64,000 nucleotides of DNA from NCBI RefSeq assembly GCF_016863135.1, contig NZ_BOOH01000013.1, forward strand, positions 1 to 64,000, given 5' to 3'. Source of the DNA: Planobispora longispora. Its GTDB lineage: Bacteria; Actinomycetota; Actinomycetes; Streptosporangiales; Streptosporangiaceae. Below, piece by piece: positions 22,079 through 38,100 of this stretch. A program made the translations under genes and the position numbers. How positions within the stretch are numbered: position 1 is the stretch's first letter; each line of letters starts with the position of its first letter. Below the pieces are notes generated by a model. That model ran no database searches and had not been told where the DNA came from. It was given only the letters and a program-made list of their open reading frames with translations.

Positions 22079-23242
22079 ATGACGAATCACCGTATCGACG
22101 TTCTCGACGTCCTCAGGGGTGTCGCCATCATGGGCACCCTGGGCACGAATATCTGGATCTTCACGGATCCCGGCGGGCCCGCCGCCGTGTTCGACACGCT
22201 GGCCCAGCCGGGAACCGTGGAGACCATCCTGAGGTTCCTGACCAACGGCAAGTTCCTGGCGCTGCTCACCCTGCTGTTCGGGGTCGGCCTGGAGCTGCAG
22301 TACCGCTCGGCGCGGCGGCGGGGCGCCCCCTGGCCGGGCTGGTACCTGTGGCGGGCGGCGCTGCTGTTCGCCGAAGGGCTGATCCACTACTTCCTGATCT
22401 TCGAGTTCGACGTGCTCATGGGCTACGCGATCACCTCGATGATCGTGGCCTACCTGATCGGCCGGAGCGACCGCGCCGTCCGGGCCTGGATGATCGGGGT
22501 GGGCTCGGTGTTCGCCGTGGTGATCGGCCTGCTCACCGCCGCCCTGGTGTACGGCCAGGACACGGCGTCCACCCCCGCCTCCGGGGAGAGCACCCTGTTC
22601 AGCGAGGGCGGCTACACCGAGCAGGTCGCCGCCCGGGCCGAGCTGTTCGGCCTCTACCGGCTGGAGGCGGTGTTCATCGTCCCGATGGGGATCGTGCTGT
22701 TCCTGCTCGGCTCGCGGCTGATGCGCGCCGGGGTGTTCGAGCGCTCCGAGCGGGGCGCCGCACTGCGCCGGAAGCTCATGATCCTGGGCCTCGGCGCGGG
22801 CGCGCCGCTGAACCTGCTGACCTCCTTCGCCGGGGAGGGCTGGTTCCTGGTGGACCGCTACCTGCTGCCCCCGCTGGTGGCGCTCGGCCTGCTCGGGCTG
22901 GTCACCTCCGTCGTCCACCGGATGTCCGGCGCCCCCGGCCTCCTCCGGCGCGGGCTGACCGCGGTCGGCCGGACGGCGCTGAGCTGCTACGTCTTCCAGA
23001 ACCTGGTGGCGGCCGTGCTCTGCTACGGCTGGGGACTCGGGCTGGCCGGGCGTCTCGACGGGCTGCGGCCGTGGTGGGTCCCGGCCGCCTGGGCGGGGAT
23101 CTGCCTGCTGTTCATGACGCTGGCCTCGCTCTGGTTGCGCCGTTTCGACCGGGGACCGCTGGAACTGCTCTGGCAGTGGGCCTACCAGGCGCCCCAGCGC
23201 TCCCGGCGAGAGCCGGAGCAGGTCCCGGTCTCCCGGCGGTGA
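22079..23242 (+). CDS. DUF418 (YeiB-like) membrane protein
   Basis: A 387-residue polytopic membrane protein with about ten hydrophobic segments. It opens with RIDVLDVLRGVAIMGTLGTNIWIF, the usual start of the acyltransferase-3-like/DUF418 family, and ends with the diagnostic DUF418 block around VGRTALSCYVFQNLVAAVLCYGWGLGL and the tail FDRGPLELLWQWAYQAP. Members are suspected membrane transporters or acyl/glycan-modifying proteins; no function is established. ATG 22079 is the best match to family starts, though an in-frame ATG at 22043 exists and no strong ribosome site is present. It converges on the giant SARP gene. Confidence 0.85.
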   Translation: MTNHRIDVLDVLRGVAIMGTLGTNIWIFTDPGGPAAVFDTLAQPGTVETILRFLTNGKFLALLTLLFGVGLELQYRSARRRGAPWPGWYLWRAALLFAEGLIHYFLIFEFDVLMGYAITSMIVAYLIGRSDRAVRAWMIGVGSVFAVVIGLLTAALVYGQDTASTPASGESTLFSEGGYTEQVAARAELFGLYRLEAVFIVPMGIVLFLLGSRLMRAGVFERSERGAALRRKLMILGLGAGAPLNLLTSFAGEGWFLVDRYLLPPLVALGLLGLVTSVVHRMSGAPGLLRRGLTAVGRTALSCYVFQNLVAAVLCYGWGLGLAGRLDGLRPWWVPAAWAGICLLFMTLASLWLRRFDRGPLELLWQWAYQAPQRSRREPEQVPVSRR

Positions 23243-23246
23243 GGCG

Positions 23247-23375
23247 GCTCAGGGCAAACGGGCTGGCGGGCGGAGGCTCAGGGCAAACGGGCTGGCGGGC
23301 GGAGGCTCCCGGCGGTGGGCCCCGCGCCTCACCGGGTCGCGCCTCACCTGGTCCCGCCTCACCGGGCCGGGTCCG
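23247..23375. repeat. 29-bp perfect tandem repeat followed by 15-bp repeats
   Basis: Units 23247-23275 and 23276-23304 are identical (GCTCAGGGCAAACGGG at their start). Directly after, about 23324-23366, a GCGCCTCACCGGGTC-like unit of 14-15 bp occurs three times. The array fills the space between the two convergent genes. Confidence 0.85.
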
Positions 23376-23398
23376 GCGGGCCCGCGCTTCGGCGGGCC

Positions 23399-26300
23399 TC
23401 AGTCCTGGAGCGCGGCGCGCAGTTCGCCGACGAGTCCGGCGCTGCGCCGTTCCATGGACCGCAGGCCCAGGCGGCGGTGCGTCTCGGCGGCCTGCTCCGC
23501 GTGCGCCAGGGCCTCCTCGATCCGGCCCGTACGGCGCAGCAGCAGCGCGACGACGTCGTGGAGCGAGCCCCACGAGACGCAGCCCGTGCCCATCGTCATC
23601 AGCTGGGAGGCGATCGGCGTCAGCTGCTCCAGCAGGCCGTGCGGGTCGGGGCGGCCGATCCGGGCGGCGACGAGCCCCCACTGCCAGACCATGTACTGCC
23701 AGGCCCAGTCACGCTCGACGGTGACGCCCCAGCGGTCGATCAGCCGGTGGGCCAGGGCCTCGTCCCCGGCCTCCAGGGCGGCCAGCACGGCGGTGGGGCG
23801 CAGCAGCCGGTTGGAGTCGTCGTCCCCGGCCTCGACCAGCTGGTCCAGCAGGCCCTGCGGCTGCCGCCCCCGCCCCCAGGCGGAGAAGAACGTGCAGGCC
23901 ATCTTGAGGGCGTCGGGTCCCCACAGACTGGTGCGCCGGTAGCTGTCGGTGGCGGCCGTCGTCAGGCGGTCGGCCTCGTCCCAGTCGCCGTCGAGCATGG
24001 CCCGCCCGACCCCGGCGTAGGTCACCTGCGTCTCGAGCTCCGGCATGCGCACCTCGGCGGTCAGCCGCTGGCAGCGCGCGAGCTCGGCGTCGAAGTCGGC
24101 CAGCATGCCCGCCCTGAGGAAGCCCGGCATGCGGTGCATCCGGGCGGTGATCTCGGTGGCGCGGGTCAGGCCCGGCAGGGTGAGGATCTCCTCGGCCGCC
24201 CGGTAGCGATCCTCGTCGTTCTCCGGCGTCCAGGCCGCGATGATGAAGTTGTTCAGGGCGCGCGCCAGCAGCTGCGGGTCCCCGGTCGCGCGGGCCAGCT
24301 CGACGGCCTCGGCGGCGTACCGCTGCCCCTCCCGCTGCCGCTCGCCGTAGTACAGCTCCACGCCGAGGGTTCCCAGCAGCTCGGCCCGCCGTCTCTCCTG
24401 ACCGGCGGGCAGCCGGGACAGCTGGTCCTCCAGAACGGCGATCATGCGCCGGTCCACGACCCCGTAGGCGCGCCAGTTCCAGAGCGTGATCCCGCCGAAG
24501 ACCGTCGCGGCCTCGATCACCGCGTCGTCGCCCAGGTCGGTGGCGAGCGTCACCGCCTCGTCCAGCGCCACCCGCGCCCCGACCACGTCGCCCGTCACCC
24601 GGCGGGCGCGGCCGAGCTCCACCAGCAGCGCGTAGCGGGAGGAGGACGCCTCCGGCGCGGACGGGTCGAGGGAGGCGAGCGCCTGCTCCCAGAACATGAC
24701 CGCCTCGTCGTAGGCGAGCCGGGCCGAGGCCTGGGCGGCGGCCCGGGCCGCGTACGAGGTGGCCTTGGCCGCGTAGCCGACCCGCGCGGCCAGGCCGAAG
24801 TGGTGGGCCAGCACCGGCAGCCGCGCGTCCAGATCGCCCCGGGCCAGGCTCTCGGCCGCCTCGCCGACCCGCCCGTGCAGCTGCGCGCGCTGCAGGCGGC
24901 TCAGCCCCGAGTACAGCGCCTCCTGGACCAGCGCGTGCGAGAAGCGGTAGTCCCAGCCGCCGTCCACCTCCGCCAGGAGCCCCGTGGCCACCGCCGGTTC
25001 CAGCAGCATCATCAGCCGCGCGCCGCCGATCCCGGAGGCGGCCTCCAGCATGTCCGCGCCGACCTCGCGGCCGATCACCGCGGCGACCCGCAGCAGCGTC
25101 TGGGAGTCCTCCGGCAGGCGCGACACCCGCTGGGCGATGACGTCGCGCACGCCGTCCGGCACGGCCAGCGCGACCACGTCGGCCGTGGTCACCCGGTCCA
25201 GCGGGTGCACGCTGGCCAGCAGGCGCAGCAGCTCGCCGAGGAAGAACGGGTTGCCCCCGGTGCGGTCGTGCAGCGCGCGGACGAGCTCCGGGTCGGTGCC
25301 GCCGAGGTAGTCGGCGATCTGCTCGGTGGTGAAGGCGGTCACGCCCATGCGCTCGGTGCCCCGCTGCCGGGTGAGCTCGCCCAGCACGTCGGTCAGCGCC
25401 TGCCGCGCCTCGGCGGGTTCGGGGCGCAGGGTGGCCAGCACCAGAAGCGGCACCCGGTGCAGGTCGCCGGCGAGGAAGGTGAGCAGTTTCAGGGAGGCGG
25501 CGTCCGCCCAGTGGATGTCCTCCATGAGGACCAGGAGGGGCCTGGCGGACGCGCGCCGGGACAGCACCCGGGAGATGGCGTCGTAGAGCAGGAAACGCGC
25601 TGTGTCGGGGTCGGCGGCGTCCGCCGAGGGGGCCGTACCGTGGGGGCGGCCGTCGCCGGTCAGCCGGCGGAGCACCTCGTGAAGATCGTCACCATCGTCG
25701 TGGAACGCCTGCAGCACCTGGATCCACGGCCAGAACGCGGGCGCGCCGCTGCCCTCGATGCACCGGCTCCACACCACGGTGAGGCCCCGCCCGCCCGCCA
25801 TCTCGGCCGCCGCCTCGGCGAGGCGGGTCTTGCCGATCCCGGACTCGCCGCTGACGAGGAAGACCCCGCCTCTGCCGATGCCGGCCTCCTCCACCCGGTC
25901 GGCGATCCGGCGCAGGTGCGGCTGCCTGCCGACGAGCCGGGGCAGGTCGCCCGCGGCGGGGACGGGGGCGAGGCCGGGCAGCGTGAGAACGGCGGGTGCC
26001 GCGGCGAGGGCGGGGACGAGGCCGGGCGCCGTGAGAACGGCGGGTGCCGCGGAGGGGGCGGGCTCCGCGGGAGCTGTGGAGACGCCGGGTCCCGCGGCAG
26101 CCGCGGAGACGTCGGATCCGGCGGGTGCGGCCGGCGCCGCCGGGGGCGTCTGCGGCCAGGGAGCGTGCGGCCAGGGGCCGTCGAGGGACGCGTCCTGATC
26201 GAGGATCGCCCGTTCCAGCCGCCGCAGCTCCGGGCTCGGGTCCAGCCCCAGCTCGTCACCGAGGAGCGTGCGGCAGCGCTGGTAGACGGCCAGGGCCTCC

Positions 26301-27007
26301 GCCTGCCTGCGGTCGCGGTACAGGGCGCGCATCAGCAGCCCCCACAGGCCCTCGCGGTAGGGGTCGTGTTCGAGCAGGCGCTCGGCCTCGACGGCCACCT
26401 CGGCGTGGCGGCCCAGGGCGAGCCAGGCCTCCGCCCGGACCGACAGCGCGGACATCCGCGTCTCGGTGAGCCGGGTGGCGAGGGATCCGGCGAAGGAGTC
26501 GTCGGGGAAGTCGGCCAGCGGCTCCCCCCGCCATTGCGAGAGGGCGGGAGCCAGGATGCGCTCGACCTCCTCCGGCCTGTTCGCGGCGAGGGCGGAGTGC
26601 GCGGCCTCGCACGCCGCGGTGAACCGGTTGGCGTCCACCTGCCCGCTGGAGATGTCGAGCAGGTAGCCGGGCTCGCGGGTGCGCAGGACGCGGGCGGGGG
26701 AGCGCGGGCTGCGCAGCGGTTCGAGGATCCGGCGCAGCTGGGAGATGTACGCCTGGAGCGTTCCCGTGGCACTGGAGGGGGGCTCGTCGGCCCACAGGCG
26801 GTCGATGAGCTGGTCGAGGGGGACGATCTGGGGGGCGTTCAGCAGCAGCAGCGCCAGGACGGCCCGCTGCTTGCGCGGGCCGATGTCGAGGACCGTTCCC
26901 GAGGAGTCCACGACCTCCAGCGGTCCCAGGATCCGGAAATCCAGCCCCGCGCCCGTCCCGTCCGCCTCGTCCACCGGGGCTCGCATGCCATCGACCGCCG
27001 TTCGCAT
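23399..27007 (-). CDS. SARP-type transcriptional activator with ATPase and TPR regions
   Basis: A 1202-residue AfsR/LAL-like regulator. Domain order: OmpR-like DNA-binding domain (about 20-115, FRILGPLEVVDSSGTVLDIGPRKQRAVLALLLL), bacterial transcriptional activator BTAD domain (about 120-265, ending LLGDELGLDPSPELRRLERAIL), an Ala/Pro-rich linker with repeated units (about 275-345), an AAA-type ATPase (Walker A VSGESGIGKTR), then about 650 residues of helical TPR-like repeats. Such proteins activate secondary-metabolism or stress genes in response to nucleotide and ligand. Its ATG shares one base with the stop of the upstream GNAT gene (TGATG), so the two are coupled. The target is unknown; a divergent oxidase gene begins 794 bases beyond its start. 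Confidence 0.9.
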   Translation of the reverse strand: MRTAVDGMRAPVDEADGTGAGLDFRILGPLEVVDSSGTVLDIGPRKQRAVLALLLLNAPQIVPLDQLIDRLWADEPPSSATGTLQAYISQLRRILEPLRSPRSPARVLRTREPGYLLDISSGQVDANRFTAACEAAHSALAANRPEEVERILAPALSQWRGEPLADFPDDSFAGSLATRLTETRMSALSVRAEAWLALGRHAEVAVEAERLLEHDPYREGLWGLLMRALYRDRRQAEALAVYQRCRTLLGDELGLDPSPELRRLERAILDQDASLDGPWPHAPWPQTPPAAPAAPAGSDVSAAAAGPGVSTAPAEPAPSAAPAVLTAPGLVPALAAAPAVLTLPGLAPVPAAGDLPRLVGRQPHLRRIADRVEEAGIGRGGVFLVSGESGIGKTRLAEAAAEMAGGRGLTVVWSRCIEGSGAPAFWPWIQVLQAFHDDGDDLHEVLRRLTGDGRPHGTAPSADAADPDTARFLLYDAISRVLSRRASARPLLVLMEDIHWADAASLKLLTFLAGDLHRVPLLVLATLRPEPAEARQALTDVLGELTRQRGTERMGVTAFTTEQIADYLGGTDPELVRALHDRTGGNPFFLGELLRLLASVHPLDRVTTADVVALAVPDGVRDVIAQRVSRLPEDSQTLLRVAAVIGREVGADMLEAASGIGGARLMMLLEPAVATGLLAEVDGGWDYRFSHALVQEALYSGLSRLQRAQLHGRVGEAAESLARGDLDARLPVLAHHFGLAARVGYAAKATSYAARAAAQASARLAYDEAVMFWEQALASLDPSAPEASSSRYALLVELGRARRVTGDVVGARVALDEAVTLATDLGDDAVIEAATVFGGITLWNWRAYGVVDRRMIAVLEDQLSRLPAGQERRRAELLGTLGVELYYGERQREGQRYAAEAVELARATGDPQLLARALNNFIIAAWTPENDEDRYRAAEEILTLPGLTRATEITARMHRMPGFLRAGMLADFDAELARCQRLTAEVRMPELETQVTYAGVGRAMLDGDWDEADRLTTAATDSYRRTSLWGPDALKMACTFFSAWGRGRQPQGLLDQLVEAGDDDSNRLLRPTAVLAALEAGDEALAHRLIDRWGVTVERDWAWQYMVWQWGLVAARIGRPDPHGLLEQLTPIASQLMTMGTGCVSWGSLHDVVALLLRRTGRIEEALAHAEQAAETHRRLGLRSMERRSAGLVGELRAALQD

Positions 27008-27525
27008 CACAGTTCCCGCCCGAACCAGATGATCGCGGGGGAGTCGAAACTTCCCATATCGTACTGATATGTCCAGCTTGTGTCCCTCGTTTCTTCCGCC
27101 GCGACGGCCACAGGAGTGAACTCCGCCGCGCGCAGCAGCGCGCGCATCCCGTCGTCCCCCGGCGTGGCCAGATAGTGCACCCGCCGTATCCCGTCGGCGC
27201 GTAACTCGGTCAGCAGGTCGCCCAGGAGCCGTCGTCCCAGCCCCCTTGCCCGGTACGGCGCCGCCACCGCCAGCGCGCGCAGGCGGGCCAGGGGCGCGGT
27301 CCGTCCCGTCTGGACCAGGGCGGCGGCCAGCGGCGGCGCCTCGGCCGGGCCGCCCAGATCGGCCAGGACGTACATGCGGCAGCGGGCCGCGGAGACCTCG
27401 CCCAGGGCCGAGGTCAGCGCCGGGCCGAGCAGCCGGGCGCCCGCCGCGTTCACGTGCGCCGGGACCTCCCGCAGCAGCAGGGTGCTGAAGGACGGGGACG
27501 ACCTGGGGTCGGGTGGCGACGGCAT
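27007..27525 (-). CDS. GNAT-family N-acetyltransferase
   Basis: A 172-residue GCN5-related acyltransferase. The acetyl-CoA-binding motif A is visible as LRALAVAAPYRARGLGRRLLGDLL, with the P-loop RARGLG (about residues 92-97), preceded by an Ala-rich beta region and followed by YLATPGDDGMRALLRAAEF, the motif B helix. The substrate is unknown. It is the first gene of a two-gene unit with the SARP regulator, overlapping it by one base, and may modify the regulator or a shared target; that is inference. The start at 27525 precedes the 275-bp spacer shared with the divergent oxidase gene. Confidence 0.8.
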   Translation of the reverse strand: MPSPPDPRSSPSFSTLLLREVPAHVNAAGARLLGPALTSALGEVSAARCRMYVLADLGGPAEAPPLAAALVQTGRTAPLARLRALAVAAPYRARGLGRRLLGDLLTELRADGIRRVHYLATPGDDGMRALLRAAEFTPVAVAAEETRDTSWTYQYDMGSFDSPAIIWFGREL

Positions 27526-27800
27526 GCCCCCAGCATCGACCGGCGCTCTAGGACGCCGCTTGGATCCGCTTCGCGACCCCTCGGATCCCCCCGCCCGCCG
27601 CCGTCGCCCGCCCGTTCCCCCTCGCCTCCCCCGCCCGCCCGCACCGGGATCACCGTGTGGTTATGGAACCTTCCAAGCCGCCTCCTGGTGGCGCACAGGT
27701 CACGCCCCAGTGCCGTCCTAGAGGCACGTGGGATAACTGGCGGCGGATCAGGCGGACCCGCCCGATCACCTCTCACCACCCCTCACCAGGAGGAGACAAC

Positions 27801-29240
27801 ATGAGCGTTCACCCGGCTTCCGGCATCGCCGGCACGGACCTAGAGATCCTGCGCAAGGACGTCCGGGGGACCGTCCTCGCCCCGGGCCAGGACGGCTTCG
27901 AGGAGGAGGCGGCCGGGTTCAACCTCGCCGTCCGGCACCGTCCCGCGGTGATCGTGGGCGCCGCCGGCGCCGAGGACGTCGCCGCCGCGCTCCGCTTCGC
28001 CACCGCCCACCGCCTGCCCGTCGCCGTGCAGGCCACCGGCCACGGGGCGGTCCAGGCGGCGGACGGCGCGGTTCTGATCACCACGTCGCGGATGCGCGGC
28101 GTCAGCGTCGACGCCTCCGCCCGCAGCGCCACGATCGCCGCGGGCTGCACCTGGGCCGAGGTCGTCGAGGCGGCCGCGCCGTACGGCCTGGCCCCGCTCA
28201 ACGGCTCGTCCTCCCGGGTCGGCGCGGTCGGCTACACCCTCGGCGGCGGTCTCGGCCCGATCGCGCGGACCTTCGGCTTCGCCGCCGACCACGTACGGGA
28301 GATCACCGTCGTGACCGCCGACGGCACGATCCGCGTCGCCGACGCCACCCGCGAGACCGACCTGTTCTGGGGACTGCGCGGCGGCAAGGGCAGCTTCGGC
28401 GTGGTGACGTCGATGACGATCGACCTGTTCCCGGTGACCTCCCTGTACGGCGGCGGCCTGTACTACGCCGCCGAGGACGCCGCCCGGGTCCTGCACGCCT
28501 ACCGCGACTGGGTCGGCGCGCTCCCCGAGTCCGTCACCACCTCCGTGGCGATGCTCCGCCTGCCTCCGGCGCCCGAGCTCCCGGAGCCGCTGCGCGGGCG
28601 TTTCGTCGTCCACCTCCGCTTCGCCTGCGTAGGCGAGGACCAGGAGGCGGAGGCCCTGCTCGCCCCCATGCGCGAGGCGGCCCAGCCGATCTTCGGAGCC
28701 GTCGGGCGGATGCCGTACACCGAGATCGACGTCGTTCACAGCGACCCGGTGGACCCCATGCCGACCTGCGAGCGCGGCGCCCTCCTGCGCGAGCTCACGG
28801 AGGAGACGGTGGAGGCGATGCTGGCGGCCGCCGGCCCCGCCGCCGAGGTCCCGCTCGCCATCGTGGAACTGCGCCAGCTGGGCGGCGCGCTGGCCCGCGA
28901 GCCCGAGGAGCCGAACGCCGTCGGCGGGCGCGACGCCGCCTTCTGCCTGCTGGTCATCGGCGCCCCGGTGCCCGAGCTGATGGACACGGTGGTCCCCGCG
29001 TGCGTCCAGGCGACCGTCGAGGCCCTGGCCCCCTGGTCGACCGGGGGCGCGCTGCTCAACTTCCTGGGCGGCGGGTTCGACGCCGAGCGGATCTCCCGGG
29101 TCTGGCCGGAGGCGGCGCTGCGCAGGCTGGTGGAGCTGAAGGACCGCTACGACCCGGAGAACCTGTTCCGCCTCGGCCACGTCGTCCCGCGCGACGGCCT
29201 GCCGGGGGGTACGGGGCGGAAGGACCACCCGCAGCACTGA
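27801..29240 (+). CDS. FAD-linked oxidase of the berberine-bridge type
   Basis: A 479-residue flavoprotein with a PCMH-type FAD domain (about 35-210) and a C-terminal BBE segment ending RYDPENLFRLGHVV. The His in ATGHGAVQAADGAV is the expected site of covalent 8-alpha-histidyl flavin attachment. The second attachment Cys of bicovalent enzymes is not evident at the YTLGGGLG segment, suggesting single linkage. Family members oxidise sugars, alcohols or natural-product intermediates. ATG 27801 follows AGGAGGAG (27788-27795). The gene diverges from the GNAT-SARP pair and is a candidate target of that activator. No signal peptide. Confidence 0.85.
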   Translation: MSVHPASGIAGTDLEILRKDVRGTVLAPGQDGFEEEAAGFNLAVRHRPAVIVGAAGAEDVAAALRFATAHRLPVAVQATGHGAVQAADGAVLITTSRMRGVSVDASARSATIAAGCTWAEVVEAAAPYGLAPLNGSSSRVGAVGYTLGGGLGPIARTFGFAADHVREITVVTADGTIRVADATRETDLFWGLRGGKGSFGVVTSMTIDLFPVTSLYGGGLYYAAEDAARVLHAYRDWVGALPESVTTSVAMLRLPPAPELPEPLRGRFVVHLRFACVGEDQEAEALLAPMREAAQPIFGAVGRMPYTEIDVVHSDPVDPMPTCERGALLRELTEETVEAMLAAAGPAAEVPLAIVELRQLGGALAREPEEPNAVGGRDAAFCLLVIGAPVPELMDTVVPACVQATVEALAPWSTGGALLNFLGGGFDAERISRVWPEAALRRLVELKDRYDPENLFRLGHVVPRDGLPGGTGRKDHPQH

Positions 29241-29250
29241 TCGGTCCTCC

Positions 29251-31143
29251 TCACGGCTCCCGGGGCGGGGCGATGACCGGGCGGAGGACGTCCAGGACCG
29301 TCGCGTCCTCGATCGTCGAGGGCACCGGTTCGTCGGCGCCCTCGGCCATGCCCCGCATGGTCTTGCGCAGGATCTTGCCCGACCTGGTCTTCGGCAGCGC
29401 CGGAACCACGTCCACCCGCTTCAGCGAGGCCACCGCCCCCACCTCGTCCCGGACCGCCCGGACCAGCTCGGCGCAGACGACGTCGGGGTCGGCCTCCACG
29501 CCGCTCTTGAGCACCACGAAGCCGCGGGGGACCTGGCCCTTCAGCGCGTCGGCGACCCCGATGACCGCGCACTCCGCGACCGCCGGGTGCGCGGCCAGCA
29601 CCGCCTCCATCGACCCGGTCGAGAGCCGGTGCCCGGCCACGTTGATCACGTCGTCGGTGCGGCCCATCACGAACAGGTAGCCGTCCTCGTCCCGGTAACC
29701 GCCGTCGCCGGTCAGGTAGTGGCCGGGGAAGGCCGACAGGTACGAGCCCACGTAACGCCCATCGTCCTGCCAGAGCGTGGGGAGGGCGCCCGGCGGGAGC
29801 GGGAGCCGCAGGCAGATGGCGCCCTCCTGACCGGGGGCGCACTCCCGGCCGTCGCCGTCGAGGACCCGTACGTCGTAGCCGGGGACGGGCACGGTGGGGG
29901 AGCCCGGCTTGATCGGCATGGGCTCCAGTCCCCGCAGGTTCGCCGCGACGGGCCAGCCGGTCTCGGTCTGCCACCAGTGGTCGATCACCGGGACGCCCAG
30001 CTTCTCCGAGGCCCAGTGGTAGGTGTCGGGGTCCAGGCGCTCCCCGGCCAGGAACAGCGTCCGCAGCGACGAGACGTCGTACTTCCCGAGCAGGGTCGCG
30101 GCCGGGTCCTCCCGCTTGATCGCCCGGAACGCGGTGGGGGCGGTGAACAGGGTGTTCACCCCGTGCTCGGCGATCACCCGCCAGAACGCGCCCGCGTCCG
30201 GCGTGCCGACCGGCTTGCCCTCGTAGAGCACGGTCGCCGCGCCGAGCAGCAGCGGGCCGTACACGATGTAGGAGTGGCCGACCACCCAGCCCACGTCGGA
30301 GGCCGCCCAGAACACGTCGTCCGGCAGGGCGCCGTAGACGTTGTGCATGCTCCACAGCAGCGCCACCGCGTGCCCGCCGTTGTCGCGCACCACGCCCTTG
30401 GGCAGGCCGGTGGTCCCGCTGGTGTAGAGGATGTAGAGCGGATCGGTCGCCTTCACCGGCACGCACCCCGCCGGGCCGGTCGCGGCGGAGGTCATGGCGG
30501 CGGCCCAGTCGACGTCCCGGCCGGGCACGAGCTCGGCGACGGCCTGCTCGCGCTGGAGGATCACGCACCGCTCGAGCCGGTGCGCGGCGAGATCGAGCGC
30601 CGCGTCGAGCATCGGCTTGTACGGCACCACCCGGCTCGGCTCGATCCCGCAGGAGGCCGAGACGACGACCTTGGGCCGCGCGTCGTCGATCCGGACCGCC
30701 AGCTCCTTCGGCGCGAACCCGCCGAACACCACCGAGTGCACCGCCCCCAGCCGCGCGCAGGCGAGCATGGCGACCACCGCCTCGGGCACCATCGGCATGT
30801 AGATCACGACCCGGTCGCCCTCGGCCACGCCCAGGTCCCGGAGCACCCCGGCGAACCGGGCGACCTCCGCCAGCAGCTCGGCGTAGGTGAAGCGGCGGAC
30901 GGTCCCGGTGACCGGGCTGTCGTAGATCAGCGCGAGCCGCTCGCCGCGCCCCGCCTCCACGTGCCGGTCGAGCGCGTTGAAACAGGTGTTCAGCTCCCCG
31001 TCGGGGAACCAGCGGTAGAAGGGCGCGTCGTCACGGTCCAGGACGCGGCCGGGTGCCCGGCTCCAGGTGACGGCCCGGGCGGCTTCGTTCCAGAAGCCCT
31101 GGGGGTCGGCGATGCTGCGGGCGAAGGCGTCAGCGTACGACAT
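29251..31143 (-). CDS. prpE: Propionyl-CoA synthetase (propionate-CoA ligase)
   Basis: AMP-forming acyl-CoA synthetase, 630 residues, the length of PrpE. The family P-loop is YTSGTTGLPKGV; ASDVGWVVGHSYIVYGPLLLGAATVLYEG and YWQTE-like WWQTETGWPVAANLRGL match PrpE closely. The hinge Asp lies in LTGDGGYRDEDGYLFVMGRTDDVINVAGHRL and the catalytic, acetylation-regulated Lys in PKTRSGKILRKT. It activates propionate, and probably acetate more weakly, in the cytosol. ATG 31143 aligns with the PrpE start (MSYADAFARSIADP); an upstream open region adds about 40 residues without similarity. A CATTAT -10 lies just before the start, so the mRNA may be nearly leaderless. It converges on the oxidase gene with a 10-base gap. 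Confidence 0.9.
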   Translation of the reverse strand: MSYADAFARSIADPQGFWNEAARAVTWSRAPGRVLDRDDAPFYRWFPDGELNTCFNALDRHVEAGRGERLALIYDSPVTGTVRRFTYAELLAEVARFAGVLRDLGVAEGDRVVIYMPMVPEAVVAMLACARLGAVHSVVFGGFAPKELAVRIDDARPKVVVSASCGIEPSRVVPYKPMLDAALDLAAHRLERCVILQREQAVAELVPGRDVDWAAAMTSAATGPAGCVPVKATDPLYILYTSGTTGLPKGVVRDNGGHAVALLWSMHNVYGALPDDVFWAASDVGWVVGHSYIVYGPLLLGAATVLYEGKPVGTPDAGAFWRVIAEHGVNTLFTAPTAFRAIKREDPAATLLGKYDVSSLRTLFLAGERLDPDTYHWASEKLGVPVIDHWWQTETGWPVAANLRGLEPMPIKPGSPTVPVPGYDVRVLDGDGRECAPGQEGAICLRLPLPPGALPTLWQDDGRYVGSYLSAFPGHYLTGDGGYRDEDGYLFVMGRTDDVINVAGHRLSTGSMEAVLAAHPAVAECAVIGVADALKGQVPRGFVVLKSGVEADPDVVCAELVRAVRDEVGAVASLKRVDVVPALPKTRSGKILRKTMRGMAEGADEPVPSTIEDATVLDVLRPVIAPPREP

Positions 31144-31433
31144 TGCGCCATAATGCATCCGCTCATGGGCATCCGGGAGATGCCCTGTCGGCCAGTGGTC
31201 GGTTCCATGCGCTCGCCGGAGTCGGAAGCGGCCGCAACCGCTGGCCGAAAAAATACGGGAAATCATAATTAATCGGGATGCTCGGGGTGGGTGAACGGCG
31301 AGCGCGCCGATTGCCGCCGTCCGCCGGCGTGAACATTTTCCCGATGCGCCTCCCCGGCCTCTCGCGTTTCCTCTCGGCGGTCTGGGATCCTTGCGTTCCG
31401 GAGTGAGGGAGAAATCAAGAGACCCGGTCAGGG

Positions 31434-32501
31434 GTGAGGGATGTGCCCGTCGCTTTGAACTCCGACGGCCGCTTGGAGGTGTTCGTCCGGAGCGGCGGAA
31501 ACGAGCTGTGGCACATCTGGCAGACCACGCCGGGCGGTCAGTGGTCCGGGTGGAGCTCTCTCGGCGGGAAGGTGTACGGAAGGCCGGCCGTGGCGGGCAA
31601 CGCCGACGGCCGCCTGGAGGTGTTCGCGCCGGGCGGCCTCACCCGGCTGTGGCACATCTGGCAGACGGCGCCCGCCGCCGGCCCGTGGTCGGAGTGGCAC
31701 CCGCTCGGCGAGATGACCTCACAAGGACCGGCCGTGGCGGGCAACGCCGACGGCCGCCTGGAGGTCTTCACCCCCGGCAACTCCAGGCGCCGCTTCGAGC
31801 ACGTCTGGCAGACCGCGCCGAACAACGGCTGGTCCGAGCCGGGCGTCCTGGGCGAACTGCGGCACTGGCCCGGATCGCCCGTCGTCGGGCGCAACGCCGA
31901 CGGCCGCCTTGAGGTCTTCAGCCGCTCCTATCGCGATTCCGAGCTGGTGCACGCCTGGCAGATCTTCACCCCCTCGGGCATCACCTGGTCCGACTGGCAC
32001 CCGTTCGGCGGGAACGGGCCGGTAGCCGTCGGCGGCAACGCCGACGGGCGGCTGGAGATATTCATGATCGGTTCCGACAAGGCCCTCTGGCACCGGTGGC
32101 AGATCTTCACCCCCTCGGGCATCACCTGGTCCGGCTGGCGCTCGCTCGGCGGGGTGCTCGACGCCGAGACGCTCGCCGTGGGACGCAACGCCGACGGGCG
32201 GCTGGAGGTGTTCGCCCGCCCGGAGGTCCGGTCCGACGACGGGATCACGCGCCGGCCGGGACCGATATTCCACATCTGGCAGACGGCACCGGGCTCCGCC
32301 TGGTCGGAATGGGAGCCTCTCGGCGGGCTCGACACGCGCTTCGATGGAGGCCCGGTGGTCGGGCGGAACGCCGACGGCCGCCTGGAGGTGTTCGCCCGCG
32401 GTTTCGGGGGCCCGCTGTGGCACATCTGGCAGATATCCGAATCCGGGGGGATCTCCTGGTCGCATTGGGAATCGCTGGACGGGTCGGTTCAGGAAATGTA
32501 A
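31434..32501 (+). CDS. Seven-bladed beta-propeller lectin, PLL type
   Basis: A 355-residue protein made almost entirely of seven repeats of about 45-55 residues. Each has the pattern NADGRLEVF, then WHIWQT, then a WSxW step and LGG (for example VGRNADGRLEVFARG and LWHIWQI). This is the repeat of the PLL/PHL lectins of Photorhabdus, whose seven blades bind fucose and related sugars between blades. Seven repeats would close one propeller. There is no signal peptide, as in the known PLLs. GTG 31434 is assigned with low certainty (GTG 31443 also possible; CAGGGG abuts the start). It is followed 18 bases later by an 886-aa gene, probably in one operon. Confidence 0.82.
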   Translation: MRDVPVALNSDGRLEVFVRSGGNELWHIWQTTPGGQWSGWSSLGGKVYGRPAVAGNADGRLEVFAPGGLTRLWHIWQTAPAAGPWSEWHPLGEMTSQGPAVAGNADGRLEVFTPGNSRRRFEHVWQTAPNNGWSEPGVLGELRHWPGSPVVGRNADGRLEVFSRSYRDSELVHAWQIFTPSGITWSDWHPFGGNGPVAVGGNADGRLEIFMIGSDKALWHRWQIFTPSGITWSGWRSLGGVLDAETLAVGRNADGRLEVFARPEVRSDDGITRRPGPIFHIWQTAPGSAWSEWEPLGGLDTRFDGGPVVGRNADGRLEVFARGFGGPLWHIWQISESGGISWSHWESLDGSVQEM

Positions 32502-32519
32502 GCCGATCGGAGAGCGAAC

Positions 32520-35180
32520 ATGCTGGTGTCCATCTTCCTCGCCGACAACGCCTTCGAACGCCTGGTCAAAATACGGCTTCTCGCGGAGTTCCGTCCGATC
32601 GACGAGCCGCTGCCCTACAAGGGCGAGTCCTGCTATATGGATGGGTTCGAAATAACGTCGATGCGGATCGGCCGGTCGTCGCGGCCGTTCACCTTCGCCC
32701 TCAACCGGCCGCAGCCCGACGGGACCGTCGCGCCGGCGGGTCCCGTCCTCGGGGTGGCGCCGATGGCCGTCAAGGTCAGCGGCGCGCTCCTGCTCGTCTC
32801 GTCCGCCGCGGTCAAGGCCGCGAGCCCCCCCGGGCCGGACGGGCGCCACGGCCTGCCGGACCGGCCGGAGCACCTGCGGGTGCCGATCATCGACGCCGAG
32901 CTCGACGCCTTCTTCACGGTCGCACCGGACGGCACGCCGCTGCTGAACCTCCCGCTCCGGGCGGTCCCCGGCGCCGAGCTCCTCGGCGACGTGCCGACCT
33001 TCCTCGGCGACCTGACCTCCCTGACCGTGCCCTTCCCGGTCAGGGACGCCTTCGCCGAACTGCTGGGACCGCAAGGGGGCCGGGTCCTCAACGCGGGCGT
33101 CGTCGCACTGACCGAGGGCCGGGGCGTGGAGATCCGGCTGGAGCTCGAACCGATCGCCCAGGGCGACGCCGCGGCCGAGAACGGCCGCCTGAGAGACTGG
33201 GCCGCCTTCTTCGCGGGCGGGCAGCCCGCGCTGCTCGCCGGCCACGACTGGGCGATCGACCTGCCGGCGGGGCCGCTCGCCGACAAGGGCGCGCGCGAGC
33301 TCGACGAGCAGTTCGGCAAGCCCGGCGTCGCCGCGCACTTCACCTCCAGCGGCGACGCCGGGGGCGCCTTCTCCCCCGGCAGACCGGGGTTCGACTTCCG
33401 CAAGCACGGCTTCTTCCCCGGCGGCTGCGCGGGCCTCGACATCCGGGCCACGGTGGAGTCGTCGACGACCCTGTCCGTCCCCGCCCCGGACACGCTCCGG
33501 ACGAGCGTCGAGCTCGACGTCGACCTCGACGACTGGGACTCCTTCAAATGCATGCTGATCTCCCTGGTCAACCCCCTGGCGGGCATCATCACCACCTTCG
33601 ACCAGGAACTGCCGTGGTTCGCGTTTCCGCTGGTCGGCGCGTTGCTGCCGCTGGTGCCGATAGCCTTCGGGCTCGGCGGCGACGACGTCCTGACCCGTGA
33701 AGCGATCAAGGAGGCGCAGAGCGCGGCCGCCGACAAGGACGGGACGGTCGTCGTCCGGACCGGCCTGAACAGCTTCCGCGTCGACGTCACCAAGAAGGTC
33801 ACGACCCCGCTGACCCGCGACTGGCTGGTCGTGGAGGACGTCGCCGGCGCCGGGGACCGCCTCGTGCTGCGCGGCCGCTTCACCGCCCCGGACCTGCGGA
33901 CGCTGCCGCGCCTGCGGGGGACGCTGAGCGACCCCTTCGGGTTCTGGACGGAGCGGGACCGCTGCTCCACCGCCGGGGAGTGGGAGACCTTCGCGACGCT
34001 GACGCTCGGCCTGGAGGACGAGACCGGCAGGCCGGTCCACCGGCCGGCGCTGCCGATCCGCTACGGCATCGACGTCCAGCCGGTCGACGGCAAGTACGCG
34101 GTGGTCGGCCAGACGACATGGAGGATCGTCGACGACGCGCAGCGGGTCTACACCGGCCCGGCCACGCTGGTCCGCTGGACCGGAAGCCCGCCGGGCGTCT
34201 TCGAGATCCAGGTCATCAACCCGCCCGAGCCCTTCCGCTCGGCGCCGTACCCGTTCCGCATGCGCTTGTTCACCTCGACCGGGGTGCGGGAGTTCGAGAT
34301 CCCGGCGCCGCCGCCGGTGCCCCGGCCGCCGGAGACCGAGGAGGAGCGGATCGCCGAGGCGGCCAAGCGGATCTCCGACTGCTACACCTTCTCCACGCTG
34401 CTCACCCGGGTGAAAGCCCTCCAGGTGTTCTGGCTGCCCACGCCTCAGCCCGTGATCAGGACCGCCCAGCACTGGCTGGTCGCGATCCGCGGGCTCGACG
34501 GGGAGGACCGGGTCAACGTGTGGGACGCGCACACCCGCGAACTGCTCGCCGAGACCCGTCCCTACGCCGGGGGACTGACCGAGGTCTCGCTGGTCCTGCC
34601 CGCCGGGCAGGCGGTGCGGGCGCTGCAGCTCACGTTGAACGAGGAGCCGCCGATCCCGATGGAGACGTACGCCCGCCGGGTGGCCGCCCTGCGGGGCCGG
34701 GACGGGGCCGCCCAGCACACCGTCCTGATCCGCCAGACACCCCTCCACACCGTGGCCGAGATCGCGCTCGGCCGGGCGGCCGAGACGGTCGTCCCCCAGC
34801 GGGACCGGGAGCGGCTGAGCCTCTTCACCCGCGGCCCGGACGGGTTCGGACGCATCGACCTCGACCCTCTCGACCCGGGACGGCACCCGGTCGGCACGCG
34901 CGTCGAACCCGATGCCGCCCCCGGGGGGCAACTTCCCGGAGCCGGCATGCGGGTCACGCGGGCGTCCCACGAGGGACGCGCGGTGACCGAGATCGTCGAG
35001 ACGGGCCTCGCCGGGCGGGAGCGGCTGGTCGGGCGCTACCGCGCCCGCCCCTGGTACGACCGCGGCGGCGTCGCCGGCGGTTTCTTCGCCCAGCTCGACG
35101 AGGCGGGCACGACGGTCACGCTGTACGTGCGGGGGGCGACGCGCACCGTCATGCCCGACATCGGCGCCCGCCGGCCATGA
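32520..35180 (+). CDS. Unrecognised 886-residue protein linked to the PLL lectin
   Basis: I do not recognise this family. The start is firm: ATG 32520 with CGGAGAG six bases upstream. The protein has no signal peptide; a single hydrophobic stretch (FAFPLVGALLPLVPIAFGLGG, about residues 363-383) follows a region reading LISLVNPLAGIITTFDQELPW and could insert into a membrane. Residues about 1-110 are beta-rich (SIFLADNAFERLVKIRLLAEF). Residues about 480-620 also look like beta strands separated by proline-rich turns. A helical segment PETEEERIAEAAKRISDCYTF precedes a C-terminal region with MPDIGARRP at its end. Its base composition is like its neighbours. Co-transcription with the lectin suggests a secreted-by-lysis or intracellular effector pair; that is inference. 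Confidence 0.75.
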   Translation: MLVSIFLADNAFERLVKIRLLAEFRPIDEPLPYKGESCYMDGFEITSMRIGRSSRPFTFALNRPQPDGTVAPAGPVLGVAPMAVKVSGALLLVSSAAVKAASPPGPDGRHGLPDRPEHLRVPIIDAELDAFFTVAPDGTPLLNLPLRAVPGAELLGDVPTFLGDLTSLTVPFPVRDAFAELLGPQGGRVLNAGVVALTEGRGVEIRLELEPIAQGDAAAENGRLRDWAAFFAGGQPALLAGHDWAIDLPAGPLADKGARELDEQFGKPGVAAHFTSSGDAGGAFSPGRPGFDFRKHGFFPGGCAGLDIRATVESSTTLSVPAPDTLRTSVELDVDLDDWDSFKCMLISLVNPLAGIITTFDQELPWFAFPLVGALLPLVPIAFGLGGDDVLTREAIKEAQSAAADKDGTVVVRTGLNSFRVDVTKKVTTPLTRDWLVVEDVAGAGDRLVLRGRFTAPDLRTLPRLRGTLSDPFGFWTERDRCSTAGEWETFATLTLGLEDETGRPVHRPALPIRYGIDVQPVDGKYAVVGQTTWRIVDDAQRVYTGPATLVRWTGSPPGVFEIQVINPPEPFRSAPYPFRMRLFTSTGVREFEIPAPPPVPRPPETEEERIAEAAKRISDCYTFSTLLTRVKALQVFWLPTPQPVIRTAQHWLVAIRGLDGEDRVNVWDAHTRELLAETRPYAGGLTEVSLVLPAGQAVRALQLTLNEEPPIPMETYARRVAALRGRDGAAQHTVLIRQTPLHTVAEIALGRAAETVVPQRDRERLSLFTRGPDGFGRIDLDPLDPGRHPVGTRVEPDAAPGGQLPGAGMRVTRASHEGRAVTEIVETGLAGRERLVGRYRARPWYDRGGVAGGFFAQLDEAGTTVTLYVRGATRTVMPDIGARRP

Positions 35181-35209
35181 GGGGACGCCGGGACGCCTGA
35201 GCGGGGCGC

Positions 35210-37993
35210 TCAGCCGGACGCCCGTCCGGGTCCCGTCCCGCCCGCCGGGCGGGACCCATCCGGCGGACGGGACGACGCTCGGGGTGTGGTGACCGTGCCC
35301 GAGGTGCCGTCCACGGTGATCTCGTGCCCGGTGTCGACGCGCTCGGTCGCGCGGGCCACGCCGACGACCGCCGGGATGCCGTACTCGCGGGCGACCACCG
35401 CGCCGTGCGAGTTGGCCCCGCCCATCTCCATCACCAGGCCGCCCGCGGTCAGGAACAGCGGGGTCCAGCCGGGGTCCGTGGACGGGCAGACCAGGATCTC
35501 GCCGGGTTCCAGGTGCGCCCCGGCCGGGTCGAGGACCACCCTGGCGAGGCCGGTCACCGTCCCGGCCGAGGCCGGCGTGCCGGTCAGCGCGCCGTCCGCG
35601 GCGGCGGGGGCGGCGACCGCCTCCGGCTCCGTGCCGTCCGACAGGATCACGCGAGGGAGGTGCCTGCGGCGTCCCTCACGCGCGGCCTCCTCGCGCCGCT
35701 CGGACACGAGCGCGCGCAACGGGCGGGTCCCGTCCGGACCGGACGCGGAGACCGGTTCCGGCGCCGCCGGGGCCTCGTCCGGGCCGGGCGCGGAGGTGAG
35801 GGCGGCGCGGACCTCCGGCAGGGTGAGGAAGAACACGCCGTCCGGGGAGTCGAGGACGCCGCGGGCGGTCAGCTCGGCGCCGATGGTCCGCAGCTCGGCG
35901 CGCATCGCGGCGAAGGTCGTGACCATGAGGAACTTGGGCAGCTCCCGCAGGCCGGCCAGGGCGCGGGCCCGGCCGAGGGCGAAGCGGACGATCCGGCCGC
36001 GGAGGCCGCCCGCGCGGGTGCTCAGGGCCGTGATCGTGCGGGCCGCCTCGGCGGCGCCCGCGGCGAACACGGCGTCGGGGGCCAGCGCCGGGTCGTCCAG
36101 CCGCAGATAGTTGGCCACCACGCCGATGATGTGCGTCGGATCCTCCGACCAGCGGGGCACCCCGATGTCGATCTCGGCCACCGCGCGGACGCCGTACGTC
36201 GCCAGGAACTCGCGCAGCCCCCCGTCCACCGCGGCGGGCAGCGATCCCGCGTGGAAACGCGCGGCGAGGTCGGCGGCGGGAGTGGTCAGCAGCAGGGACG
36301 CGGCCTCGGCGTCCCGGCGGATCCGGGTGGCCAGGTCCCACAGGGCCAGGTCCATCTCGGTGGTCACGTTGTGCGGCAGGCCGCGCAGGACGGTGAGCAT
36401 CTCGCCGGGGCGGGCGCGGTCGCCCAGCAGCCGGGAGGCCAGGCCGAACATGGCGAGCCCGGCCAGCGCGCTCGGCAGGATCGTCGGGACGACCGGGAAG
36501 ACCTTGGCGGCTATCGTGCGCTCGACGAGGTCGAGCCGTTCGAGCGGGGTGGCGTCCTCCGGGGAGGCGAGCCGTGCCCGCAGCTCCGCCTCCACCCGTG
36601 CCGCGTCGCGGTGCGCGGCCTCCGGGCTCAGCAGGGCCCGGACGATGCGCGGGGGGACCCGGTAGCGGGTCGCGATCCGCGCGACCCGGCGCAGAGCGGG
36701 ACGGACGGAGCGCTGGGTCACGCTGAACCGGGGGTCGCGGGCCAGCTCCCGCAGGACCACGGCCGACCTGGCCTCCATCAGGTCCAGCAGCCGGGGCGCG
36801 AGCGTCCGCCCGACCCGGCTCCGGATGACCCCGGTGACGTCGAAGAACAATCGCCCGCCGCCGACGGCGAGGATCGGCGCTCCCTCGCGGGGGTCGGGCA
36901 CCGTGATGCCGTACACCCCGGCGGCGACCGACGAGACCAGCCGGAGGACCCCCTGGCCCATCGGCGTCAAGGGCTGGTAGACCCCCTGCGCGACGCTGAA
37001 CGAGAAGTAGATCCGGGGGCCGGAGGGCGCCGGGGCGGTGGGCAGGCGCCGGGGGATCGGGAAGAGCGTGGTGATCGGGCGTGACTGGGTCAGCCAGAGG
37101 ACGCCGTCGCCGTCGATCGCCCACTCGGTGTCCTGGGGCGCCCCGTAGTGGTCCTCGACCCGCCCGCCCAGCTCGGCCAGGGCCCCGATCTGCTCGTCGG
37201 TGAGGCACGCGCCGTCCGCCGCCGTCTCGACGTGCTCGACGCCGCCCTCCGGCAGGGGCCGTACGGCCAGCAGCTTGTCTCCCAGCCGCCGCTCGGTGAT
37301 CCGCCCGGTGGCGATGTCCACCACGAAGTGGTCGGGGTTGACCGCGCCGGAGACGACGGCCTCACCGAGGCCGGGACTGGCGTCGATCACGGCCTCGCGC
37401 CGCCGCCCGGTGACGGGGTTGGCGGTGAACATCACCCCGGCGACCTCGGCCCGCACCATCTCCTGGATCACGACGGCCAGCCGCACGGTGCGGTGGTCGA
37501 TGCCGTTCGCCGCCCGGTAGGCCACGGCCCGGTCGGTCCACAGGGACGCCCAGCAGTTCCGGACCGCCTCCAGCACGGCGTCCGGGCCGATGACGTTGAG
37601 GTAGGTGTCCTGCTGCCCGGCGAAGCTGGCGTGCGGCAGGTCCTCGGCGGTGGCGGAGGAGCGGACGGCGACGGGGCCGCGCGCGCCGCGTCGTACGGCC
37701 TCGGCGATGTCGTCGGGAACCGGCGCGTCGAGAATGATCTTCCGGGCCATCGCGGCCAGCTCGCCCAGTCCCCGCGTGTCCGTGGCGGGGGTCGCCTCCA
37801 GGGAGTCGAACACCGCCTCCAGGCTGCCGGACCGCTCGGTGACCCGCCGGTATGCCTCGGTGGTGACGCACCGGCCCGGCGGGACGGGGAGCCCGGCGGC
37901 GGTCAGCACGCCGAGATTGGCGGCCTTGCCGCCGACGAGCGGCAGCGCGTCCGCTCCGATCTCGTGAAATTCCAGGATCAGTGGAGCGTTCAT
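35210..37993 (-). CDS. PEP-synthase-like dikinase, rifampin phosphotransferase type
   Basis: A 927-residue three-domain enzyme. Residues about 1-325 form the ATP-grasp-like PEP/pyruvate-binding domain (LVGGKAANLG near 15-25, VRSSATAEDLPHASFAGQQDTYLNV near 110-135, GLGEAVVSGAVNPDHFVV). A large variable middle domain follows. The C-terminal swivelling domain has the phosphohistidine at about His863 in GGANSHGAVVAREYGIPAVVGV; the HGAVVAREYGIP form is that of rifampin phosphotransferases, not of PpsA (TSHAAI). It may inactivate rifamycins or phosphorylate another compound. ATG 37993 has AAGGAGG seven bases upstream. No rifamycin-associated palindrome was seen in front. Confidence 0.75.
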   Translation of the reverse strand: MNAPLILEFHEIGADALPLVGGKAANLGVLTAAGLPVPPGRCVTTEAYRRVTERSGSLEAVFDSLEATPATDTRGLGELAAMARKIILDAPVPDDIAEAVRRGARGPVAVRSSATAEDLPHASFAGQQDTYLNVIGPDAVLEAVRNCWASLWTDRAVAYRAANGIDHRTVRLAVVIQEMVRAEVAGVMFTANPVTGRRREAVIDASPGLGEAVVSGAVNPDHFVVDIATGRITERRLGDKLLAVRPLPEGGVEHVETAADGACLTDEQIGALAELGGRVEDHYGAPQDTEWAIDGDGVLWLTQSRPITTLFPIPRRLPTAPAPSGPRIYFSFSVAQGVYQPLTPMGQGVLRLVSSVAAGVYGITVPDPREGAPILAVGGGRLFFDVTGVIRSRVGRTLAPRLLDLMEARSAVVLRELARDPRFSVTQRSVRPALRRVARIATRYRVPPRIVRALLSPEAAHRDAARVEAELRARLASPEDATPLERLDLVERTIAAKVFPVVPTILPSALAGLAMFGLASRLLGDRARPGEMLTVLRGLPHNVTTEMDLALWDLATRIRRDAEAASLLLTTPAADLAARFHAGSLPAAVDGGLREFLATYGVRAVAEIDIGVPRWSEDPTHIIGVVANYLRLDDPALAPDAVFAAGAAEAARTITALSTRAGGLRGRIVRFALGRARALAGLRELPKFLMVTTFAAMRAELRTIGAELTARGVLDSPDGVFFLTLPEVRAALTSAPGPDEAPAAPEPVSASGPDGTRPLRALVSERREEAAREGRRRHLPRVILSDGTEPEAVAAPAAADGALTGTPASAGTVTGLARVVLDPAGAHLEPGEILVCPSTDPGWTPLFLTAGGLVMEMGGANSHGAVVAREYGIPAVVGVARATERVDTGHEITVDGTSGTVTTPRASSRPPDGSRPAGGTGPGRASG

Positions 37994-38100
37994 GGTCGGG
38001 CCTCCTTGAACTCCACGATAAATCCGCGCGGCCATTAAATCAACAAGTGATGAAATAGTGGTCCGCCCGGAAGGGCTCAGGGGGCCAAGGGCTCAGAGGC

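What the first reader, a model, noticed from the sequence alone, without database searches (positions are those of the whole stretch)
31434..35180. PLL-type seven-bladed lectin operon with an unrecognised 886-residue partner
The sequence shows seven NADGRLEVF/WHIWQT/WSxW repeats in one protein, the architecture known from Photorhabdus PLL lectins, and 18 bases downstream a large gene with its own good ribosome site that I cannot place in any family. Neither product has a signal peptide. Flanking genes are metabolic and unrelated. A glycan-binding propeller paired with a large beta-rich protein having one hydrophobic segment could be a toxin-lectin or host/competitor-directed pair; that role is inference.
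Basis: partly seen in the sequence, partly recalled or inferred. Interest (0 to 1): 0.75.

Follow-up and report, generated by a model that had tools for sequence, protein, structure and literature searches.

The report
Lectin gene paired with orphan gene
A bacterium carries, inserted between two metabolic genes, a sugar-binding lectin like those of insect-killing Photorhabdus next to a large protein for which no clear relative was found; the two may form a lectin-guided pair, but their role is unproven.

Summary
ORF 31434-32501 (355 aa) has seven blades of the PLL/PropLec7A lectin family; PDB lectins match down to E 1e-140. Residues of the Photorhabdus galactose-type sites are kept in 7 of 7 blades, the first fucose-site Trp in 4 of 7. 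Eighteen bases on, 32520-35180 (886 aa) looks truly coding but is an orphan: no accepted family, PDB, plasmid, phage or genome relative in the searches made. Both genes lie in ~4.1 kb (31157-35290) absent from a congener. The recurrent pairing hoped for was not seen for the 886-aa protein, and its fold could not be predicted. A marginal hint of two decayed lectin blades near its C-terminus (about 1% of shuffles score as high) is unresolved. In related genera four free-standing PLL lectins adjoin another unknown ~260-aa family, found in 4 of 297 genomes, each time beside a lectin; elsewhere the propeller is often fused to peptidases. Best reading: an acquired lectin-plus-effector cassette. A toxin role is inference.

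The parts
31434..32501 (+). Free-standing PLL/PropLec7A-type seven-bladed beta-propeller lectin, 355 aa (possible true start GTG 31443)
   Evidence: ORF; seven blades; eight distinct PDB sequences, E 1e-140 to 2e-80; FG-GAP_3 2.7e-12; site residues and codon log-odds
32509..32514 (+). Shine-Dalgarno-like GGAGAG, 5 nt before the ATG of the 886-aa gene
   Evidence: sequence
32520..35180 (+). Orphan 886-aa protein with two hydrophobic segments (around residues 75-98 and 364-387) and no accepted family match; marginal hint of two decayed blade motifs at residues 725-734 and 765-775
31157..35290 (.). Stretch holding both genes and absent from congener G195 (L109), where the flanking genes' homologous stretches are about 103 bp apart
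   Evidence: blastn; local alignments (homology ends at window 31156 / L109 12794 and resumes at window 35291 / L109 12690)
29251..31266 (-). Flank: acetyl-CoA-synthetase-type AMP-binding enzyme (not part of the cassette)
   Evidence: AMP-binding 2e-80, ACAS_N 9e-21
35210..38035 (-). Flank: PEP-synthase-like PPDK_N/PEP-utiliser protein (not part of the cassette)
   Evidence: PPDK_N 1.7e-96, PEP-utilizers 8.3e-26

Best explanation
A gained two-gene cassette. The first gene makes a multivalent glycan-binding propeller of the PLL type without a recognisable export signal; the second, in what looks like one operon, makes a large orphan protein with two hydrophobic segments that acts at a glycan-bearing surface or membrane. 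The lectin would work in trans as the binding part for its partner, as fused propellers presumably do in cis on peptidases in relatives. Shown: the lectin family, the coding look of both genes, the shared stretch absent from a congener, the lack of relatives in the searches made. Inferred: gain rather than loss elsewhere, co-transcription, interaction, release from the cell, target and activity.
For: Lectin identity, and polar-site residues kept in 7 of 7 blades. 18-nt gap, own ribosome site, same strand, no terminator-like site between the genes. Both genes are inside one stretch bounded by conserved flanks. 20 of 28 relatives' lectin ORFs scanned with Pfam, chosen mainly for length, carry an enzyme domain beside the propeller: 10 M10, 2 M12A, 2 S8, 2 C13 (one, L040, below the curated cut-off), 2 C1, 1 GH43, 1 protein kinase. 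In sister genera four free-standing lectins of one clade adjoin an unknown ~260-aa protein with a hydrophobic stretch; that family is in 4 of 297 genomes, each time beside the lectin. Photorhabdus PLLs bind fucosylated and O-methylated glycans and their authors place their main role in pathogenicity rather than symbiosis (PMC12203525, passages).
Against: No accepted relative of the 886-aa protein is found with any other lectin, so the pair rests on one example. No fold, no interaction data, no secretion signal. The ~260-aa neighbours lie divergent or convergent to their lectins, not downstream in one operon, and are unrelated to the 886-aa protein in sequence; L039, in the same lectin clade, has no such neighbour in the locus held. 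Host, glycan target and activity are unknown.
Confidence: 0.42

Rival explanations
1. Passengers: the two genes share one insert but are functionally unrelated; the lectin acts alone.
For: Only one example of the pair in the data. The same site holds other cargo in congeners G196 and G197, which I read by eye as a sugar-transport operon and a chitinase, so it accepts varied genes. 36 of 76 classified lectins are free-standing, 12 of them Photorhabdus copies, with no 886-aa relative found in their loci.
Against: 18-nt spacing on one strand with a ribosome site suggests an operon; no other ORF in the stretch looks coding by the tests made.
Confidence: 0.27
2. Self-surface role: lectin and large protein decorate the producer's own hyphae or spores (adhesion, aggregation), with no other organism as target.
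For: Hydrophobic segments of the 886-aa protein could sit in a membrane. Surface proteins without classical signals in actinomycetes are recalled, not searched.
Against: Neither gene was found in the three congeners sampled, G195-G197, odd for a core surface structure; the lectin sits on a long branch (0.93).
Confidence: 0.17
3. The 886-aa protein is a tubular-lipid-binding (TULIP-type) carrier that works like P47/OrfX-class accessory proteins, and the lectin brings it to a target membrane.
For: Only by eye: mixed strand/helix patterns and hydrophobic segments. P47 and OrfX2 gave no significant hits but each other in a published remote-homology search (PMC6791001, passages), so lack of a match is weak evidence against.
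Against: No Pfam match to such families for the whole protein (E up to 1) or for eight overlapping segments (E up to 10); no fold prediction was possible.
Confidence: 0.08

Closest known systems
Photorhabdus PLL/PHL lectins (PropLec7A, seven-bladed bangle lectins)
   Same: Seven NADGRLEVF / WHxWQT / WSxW blades, free-standing, no signal-like N-terminus by eye, polar-site residues kept in 7 of 7 blades.
   Different: Single copy in its genome, not an array as in Photorhabdus loci; lacks their ~40-residue N-terminal extension; first fucose-site Trp in only 4 of 7 blades; no Cys; long branch with no supported sister.
Peptidase-propeller fusions (M10 matrixin, M12A astacin, S8, C1, C13 with C-terminal propeller)
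   Same: Same seven-bladed propeller, up to 57% identity (L013).
   Different: There the propeller is the C-terminal part of one protein; here it is a separate gene beside an orphan.
Free-standing lectins beside the ~260-aa unknown family (L129, L131, L133, L134)
   Same: Same bacterial family by handle (f1), free-standing lectin, adjacent protein with a hydrophobic stretch and no Pfam match.
   Different: The partner is unrelated in sequence, about three times smaller, and divergent or convergent rather than downstream.
P47/OrfX TULIP proteins
   Same: Large size and hydrophobic segments only.
   Different: No profile match; fold untested.

Membership tests
PLL / PropLec7A lectin | Seven tandem ~48-residue blades with DGRLEVF and WHxWQ / WSxW motifs | tested here: met
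   blade 3 has WSEP in place of WSxW, and blades 3, 4, 6 lack the first Trp of WHxWQ
PLL / PropLec7A lectin | Strong sequence similarity to solved PLL structures | tested here: met
   eight distinct sequences, E 1e-140 to 2e-80 (three labelled only as Photorhabdus genome segment)
PLL / PropLec7A lectin | Polar (galactose) site residues Arg, Glu, Trp, Gln, Trp (from PHL, PMC5584973) | tested here: met
   7 of 7 blades; residues from passages, mapped to the blade motif by me
PLL / PropLec7A lectin | Hydrophobic (fucose) site: two Trp and a Thr | tested here: inconclusive
   first Trp in 4 of 7 blades, second in 6 of 7; Thr position not kept by my reading of the printed loops
PLL / PropLec7A lectin | Binds fucosylated or O-methylated glycans | not testable with these tools
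   needs protein
Peptidase-propeller fusion | Catalytic domain in the same polypeptide | tested here: not met
   only FG-GAP_3 in the 355-aa protein
PLL-type propeller in the 886-aa protein | Recognisable blade repeats | tested here: inconclusive
   two partial motifs 46 residues apart; blade models score 2.5, 1.5 and -0.9 bits, reached by 9, 9 and 10 of 998 shuffles; 6 lectin ORFs among 16 BLAST hits of E up to 10, reached by 0 of 200 shuffles (maximum 5)
P47/OrfX or other TULIP family (886-aa protein) | Match to a Pfam profile | tested here: not met
   none at E up to 1; eight segments at E up to 10 gave only DUF1454 (0.09 and 0.17) and PAS_4 (0.38), below cut-off
P47/OrfX or other TULIP family (886-aa protein) | TULIP fold | not testable with these tools
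   structure prediction busy, interrupted, then switched off
Conserved toxin-lectin two-gene system | Recurrent co-occurrence of both genes | tested here: not met
   no accepted 886-aa relative in 81 lectin neighbourhoods (best phmmer E 0.08) or 32 lectin-bearing genomes

The most novel reading that the evidence does not exclude
Free-standing PLL propellers are exchangeable glycan-binding parts that actinomycetes pair, gene by gene, with different orphan membrane-active proteins: the 886-aa protein here (perhaps itself carrying a decayed propeller) and the ~260-aa family in sister genera would be two such effectors of one undescribed, fast-turning-over lectin-guided effector system.
Probability: 0.2. 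Interest if true: 0.75.

Novelty: new variant of a known kind. Interest (0 to 1): 0.42.

Why it matters
PLL lectins have been studied in Photorhabdus as stand-alone proteins, and the authors believe their native ligands are still unidentified (PMC12203525, passages). If other bacteria pair such lectins with separately encoded effector proteins, the propeller would be a general targeting part, and its gene neighbours a source of unknown effector families.

Tried and rejected
1. Family and PDB searches of the 886-aa protein, whole and in segments. Weak hits (glutaminase 0.45-0.94, DUF1454 0.09-0.17, PAS_4 0.38) were taken as chance.

2. A match in genome G186 (E 1.3e-4, for one genome of 345) was rejected: it lies in an open frame of 108 residues and realigns over only 56 residues at 41%. 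Five fragments (14-16 bits, two with stops inside) were rejected likewise.

3. A decayed propeller in the 886-aa C-terminus: first set aside (score -1.0, exceeded by 12 of 300 shuffles), then retested because 6 of the 16 weak BLAST hits were lectin ORFs. Left open: about 1% of shuffles score as high, the test was chosen after seeing the hits, and lectin ORFs are related to each other, so their hits are not independent.

4. Antisense ORFs over the pair (e.g. 31719-34970, 1083 aa): rejected on codon log-odds.

5. Insert ends: no inverted repeats of 20 nt or more in 31100-35400; the five direct-repeat families listed all lie in the lectin. No integrase or IS search was made.

6. A profile of the ~260-aa neighbours matched a 33-residue stretch of repeat-type clostridial chains in PDB (best E 5.5e-4, eight sequences up to E 10). 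Treated as a repeat-motif resemblance; not followed up.

7. The WD40 search of the own genome bore on nothing.
Full report
WHAT IS THERE. ORF 31434-32501 (+) encodes 355 aa, and 18 bases later ORF 32520-35180 (+) encodes 886 aa, with GGAGAG five bases before its ATG. Both have the codon make-up of genes here: third-position GC 91% and 95%, and positive codon log-odds only in the ORF's own frame. No sigma-70-like promoter was found in 31150-35400 (0; shuffles 0.0), and the one terminator-like site (35063-35076) is inside the second gene and no more than chance (1 found, shuffles 1.1). Co-transcription is therefore inferred from spacing.

THE LECTIN. Seven blades of 47, 48, 50, 48, 50, 60 and 46 residues carry DGRLE[VI]F. 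phmmer against PDB gives eight distinct sequences at E up to 0.001: PLL, PLL2, PLL3, PHL and others labelled Photorhabdus, E from 1e-140 to 2e-80. Pfam calls FG-GAP_3 (2.7e-12). LectomeXplore says Pfam DUF346 is likely a PLL-like lectin, PropLec7A (PMC7778903, passages); DUF346 was called in many fused relatives, not in this one. Using the site residues given for PHL (PMC5584973, passages), which I mapped to the blade motif, the galactose-type polar site (Arg, Glu, Trp, Gln, first Trp of WSxW) is kept in 7 of 7 blades. In the fucose site the first Trp is kept in 4 of 7 (blades 1, 2, 5, 7) and the second in 6 of 7 (all but blade 3); the Thr is not kept by my reading. There is no Cys, so the disulphide-linked oligomers described for PHL and PLL are not expected. 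In a 60-row propeller tree the window lectin stands on a long branch (0.93) with no supported sister; its highest identity is 57% to L013. It is the only match in its own genome at E up to 0.01.

THE 886-AA PROTEIN. No accepted family in Pfam, NCBIfam, PHROGs or PADLOC and no PDB sequence. Single copy in its genome. tblastn at E up to 0.1 finds nothing in 72,556 plasmid and 50,697 phage records. Pattern scans of genome contigs and viral contigs, which reach close relatives only, find nothing. Whole-genome searches: order, 2 of 345 (itself, and G186, rejected); phylum, 6 of 396 at E up to 0.01 (itself and five 14-16-bit fragments); class, 1 of 296 (itself); 0 of 32 genomes of named lectin loci (34 of 41 loci asked, 2 not held); 0 of 249 from the phylum of G982. 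The samples overlap. For some searches the tool warns that an empty answer without a known positive shows nothing, so distant relatives may exist. There are two hydrophobic segments (windows of mean 1.6 or more start at residues 75-80 and 364-369) and no internal duplication by BLAST. Fold prediction did not run to an end.

A MARGINAL HINT. Six of the 16 weak BLAST hits (E 0.16-8.2) of the 886-aa protein among 672 proteins of the lectin neighbourhoods are lectin ORFs (41 of the 672), and five of the six align to residues 689-775. None of 200 shuffles gave six (mean 0.54, maximum 5). Two partial blade motifs, RGRDGAAQH (725) and RLSLFTRGPDG (765), have their RG-x-DG parts 46 residues apart, about one blade. 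But profile models of one blade, two blades and the whole propeller score only 2.5, 1.5 and -0.9 bits, reached by 9, 9 and 10 of 998 shuffles. The test was chosen after seeing the hits. It is a lead for a decayed propeller in the C-terminus, not a finding.

THE INSERT. In the three congeners sampled neither gene is found. In G195 (88% identity in the flanking PEP-synthase-like protein) homology to the window ends at 31156 and resumes at 35291 with about 103 bp between: 4.1 kb of the window is absent there. In G196 and G197 the same site holds about 6.8-6.9 kb with frames that I read by eye as a sugar kinase, a sugar ABC transporter, a LacI-type regulator and a chitinase (not profile-tested). 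The site is variable. That the pair was gained here, rather than lost elsewhere, is likely but not proven.

RELATIVES OF THE LECTIN. PLL-like matches at E up to 1e-10 occur in 42 of 342 genomes of the order, the own genome included, and 41 loci were found in named genomes, 12 of them Photorhabdus. I examined 81 neighbourhoods: those 41, and 40 from 39 of the 41 other genomes (G272 and G156 were not fetched). 76 gave an ORF with at least four blades: 40 carry 150 or more further residues on one side (called fused; this overcounts where starts are uncertain) and 36 are free-standing (some are cut by contig ends). I scanned 28 of these ORFs with Pfam, chosen mainly for length: 20 carry an enzyme domain (M10 in 10, M12A 2, S8 2, C1 2, C13 2 of which one is below the cut-off, GH43 1, protein kinase 1), 8 do not. 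No accepted relative of the 886-aa protein was found in these neighbourhoods (tblastn on 78 loci held at that time; phmmer, best E 0.08; blastp, best E 0.16).

A RECURRING NEIGHBOUR ELSEWHERE. Four free-standing lectins of the order (L129, L131, L133, L134; one clade with L039, support 100/100) have an adjacent protein of 263-284 aa as called, with no Pfam match at E up to 0.1, 45-81% identical to each other, with a hydrophobic stretch (sequence). A profile search finds the family in 4 of 297 genomes, and the four matches are these lectin neighbours (set). Orientation differs: divergent in L129 and L133, convergent in L131 and L134. Adjacency that survives a change of orientation suggests a functional link. 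The family was picked because it lies next to lectins, so its presence there is no test; its absence from the other 293 genomes is. L039, of the same clade, shows no such neighbour in the locus held.

MECHANISM. I judge most likely that the lectin serves as a multivalent binding part for the co-encoded orphan (0.42). Passenger genes (0.27), a self-surface role (0.17) and a TULIP-type carrier (0.08) remain open. Nothing here shows that the product acts as a toxin.

NOVELTY. The lectin is a new member of a known family. A free-standing PLL lectin with a separately encoded orphan partner is a variant that I did not meet in the papers searched (listings; passages of six papers). The library lacks most subscription journals, and no paper was read whole.

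The blade hint was moved from rejected to open, the statement on the G186 frame was corrected, and counts were completed.

Noticed in passing
L129:9926-10717, L133:10059-10910, L134:8101-8937, L131:10235-11089: A ~260-aa family without Pfam match sits next to a free-standing PLL lectin in the 4 of 297 genomes that have it, in divergent or convergent orientation.
   Followed up: partly
L013, L016, L017, L019, L022, L025, L033, L035, L037, L038, L042, L046, L047, L116, L118, L122, L126: The PLL propeller is a C-terminal part on five peptidase classes (M10, M12A, S8, C1, C13), in records titled Actinomycetota, Pseudomonadota, Bipolaricaulota and Chlorobiaceae among others.
   Followed up: partly
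window 31157-35290; L109 12690-12794; L110 3474-10244; L111 8628-15537: The site between the AMP-binding enzyme and the PEP-synthase-like gene is variable in the genus: about 103 bp in one congener, 6.8-6.9 kb read by eye as a sugar-transport operon with a chitinase in two others.
   Followed up: partly
window 33241-35177 region, residues 725-775 of the 886-aa protein: Two partial lectin-blade motifs 46 residues apart; about 1% of shuffles score as high.
   Followed up: partly
window 31949-32012 and 32090-32153: Blades 4 and 5 share a 64-nt stretch at 89% identity, with an identical run encoding WQIFTPSGITWS, suggesting recent duplication or conversion.
   Followed up: no
window 23207-29250: About 6 kb, with long ORFs at 23399-27010 and 27657-29240, is also missing between conserved stretches in congener G195.
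   Followed up: no
L009:8454-9308 and L028:13258-14190: Photorhabdus lectin arrays include frames in which only five blades were detected.
   Followed up: no
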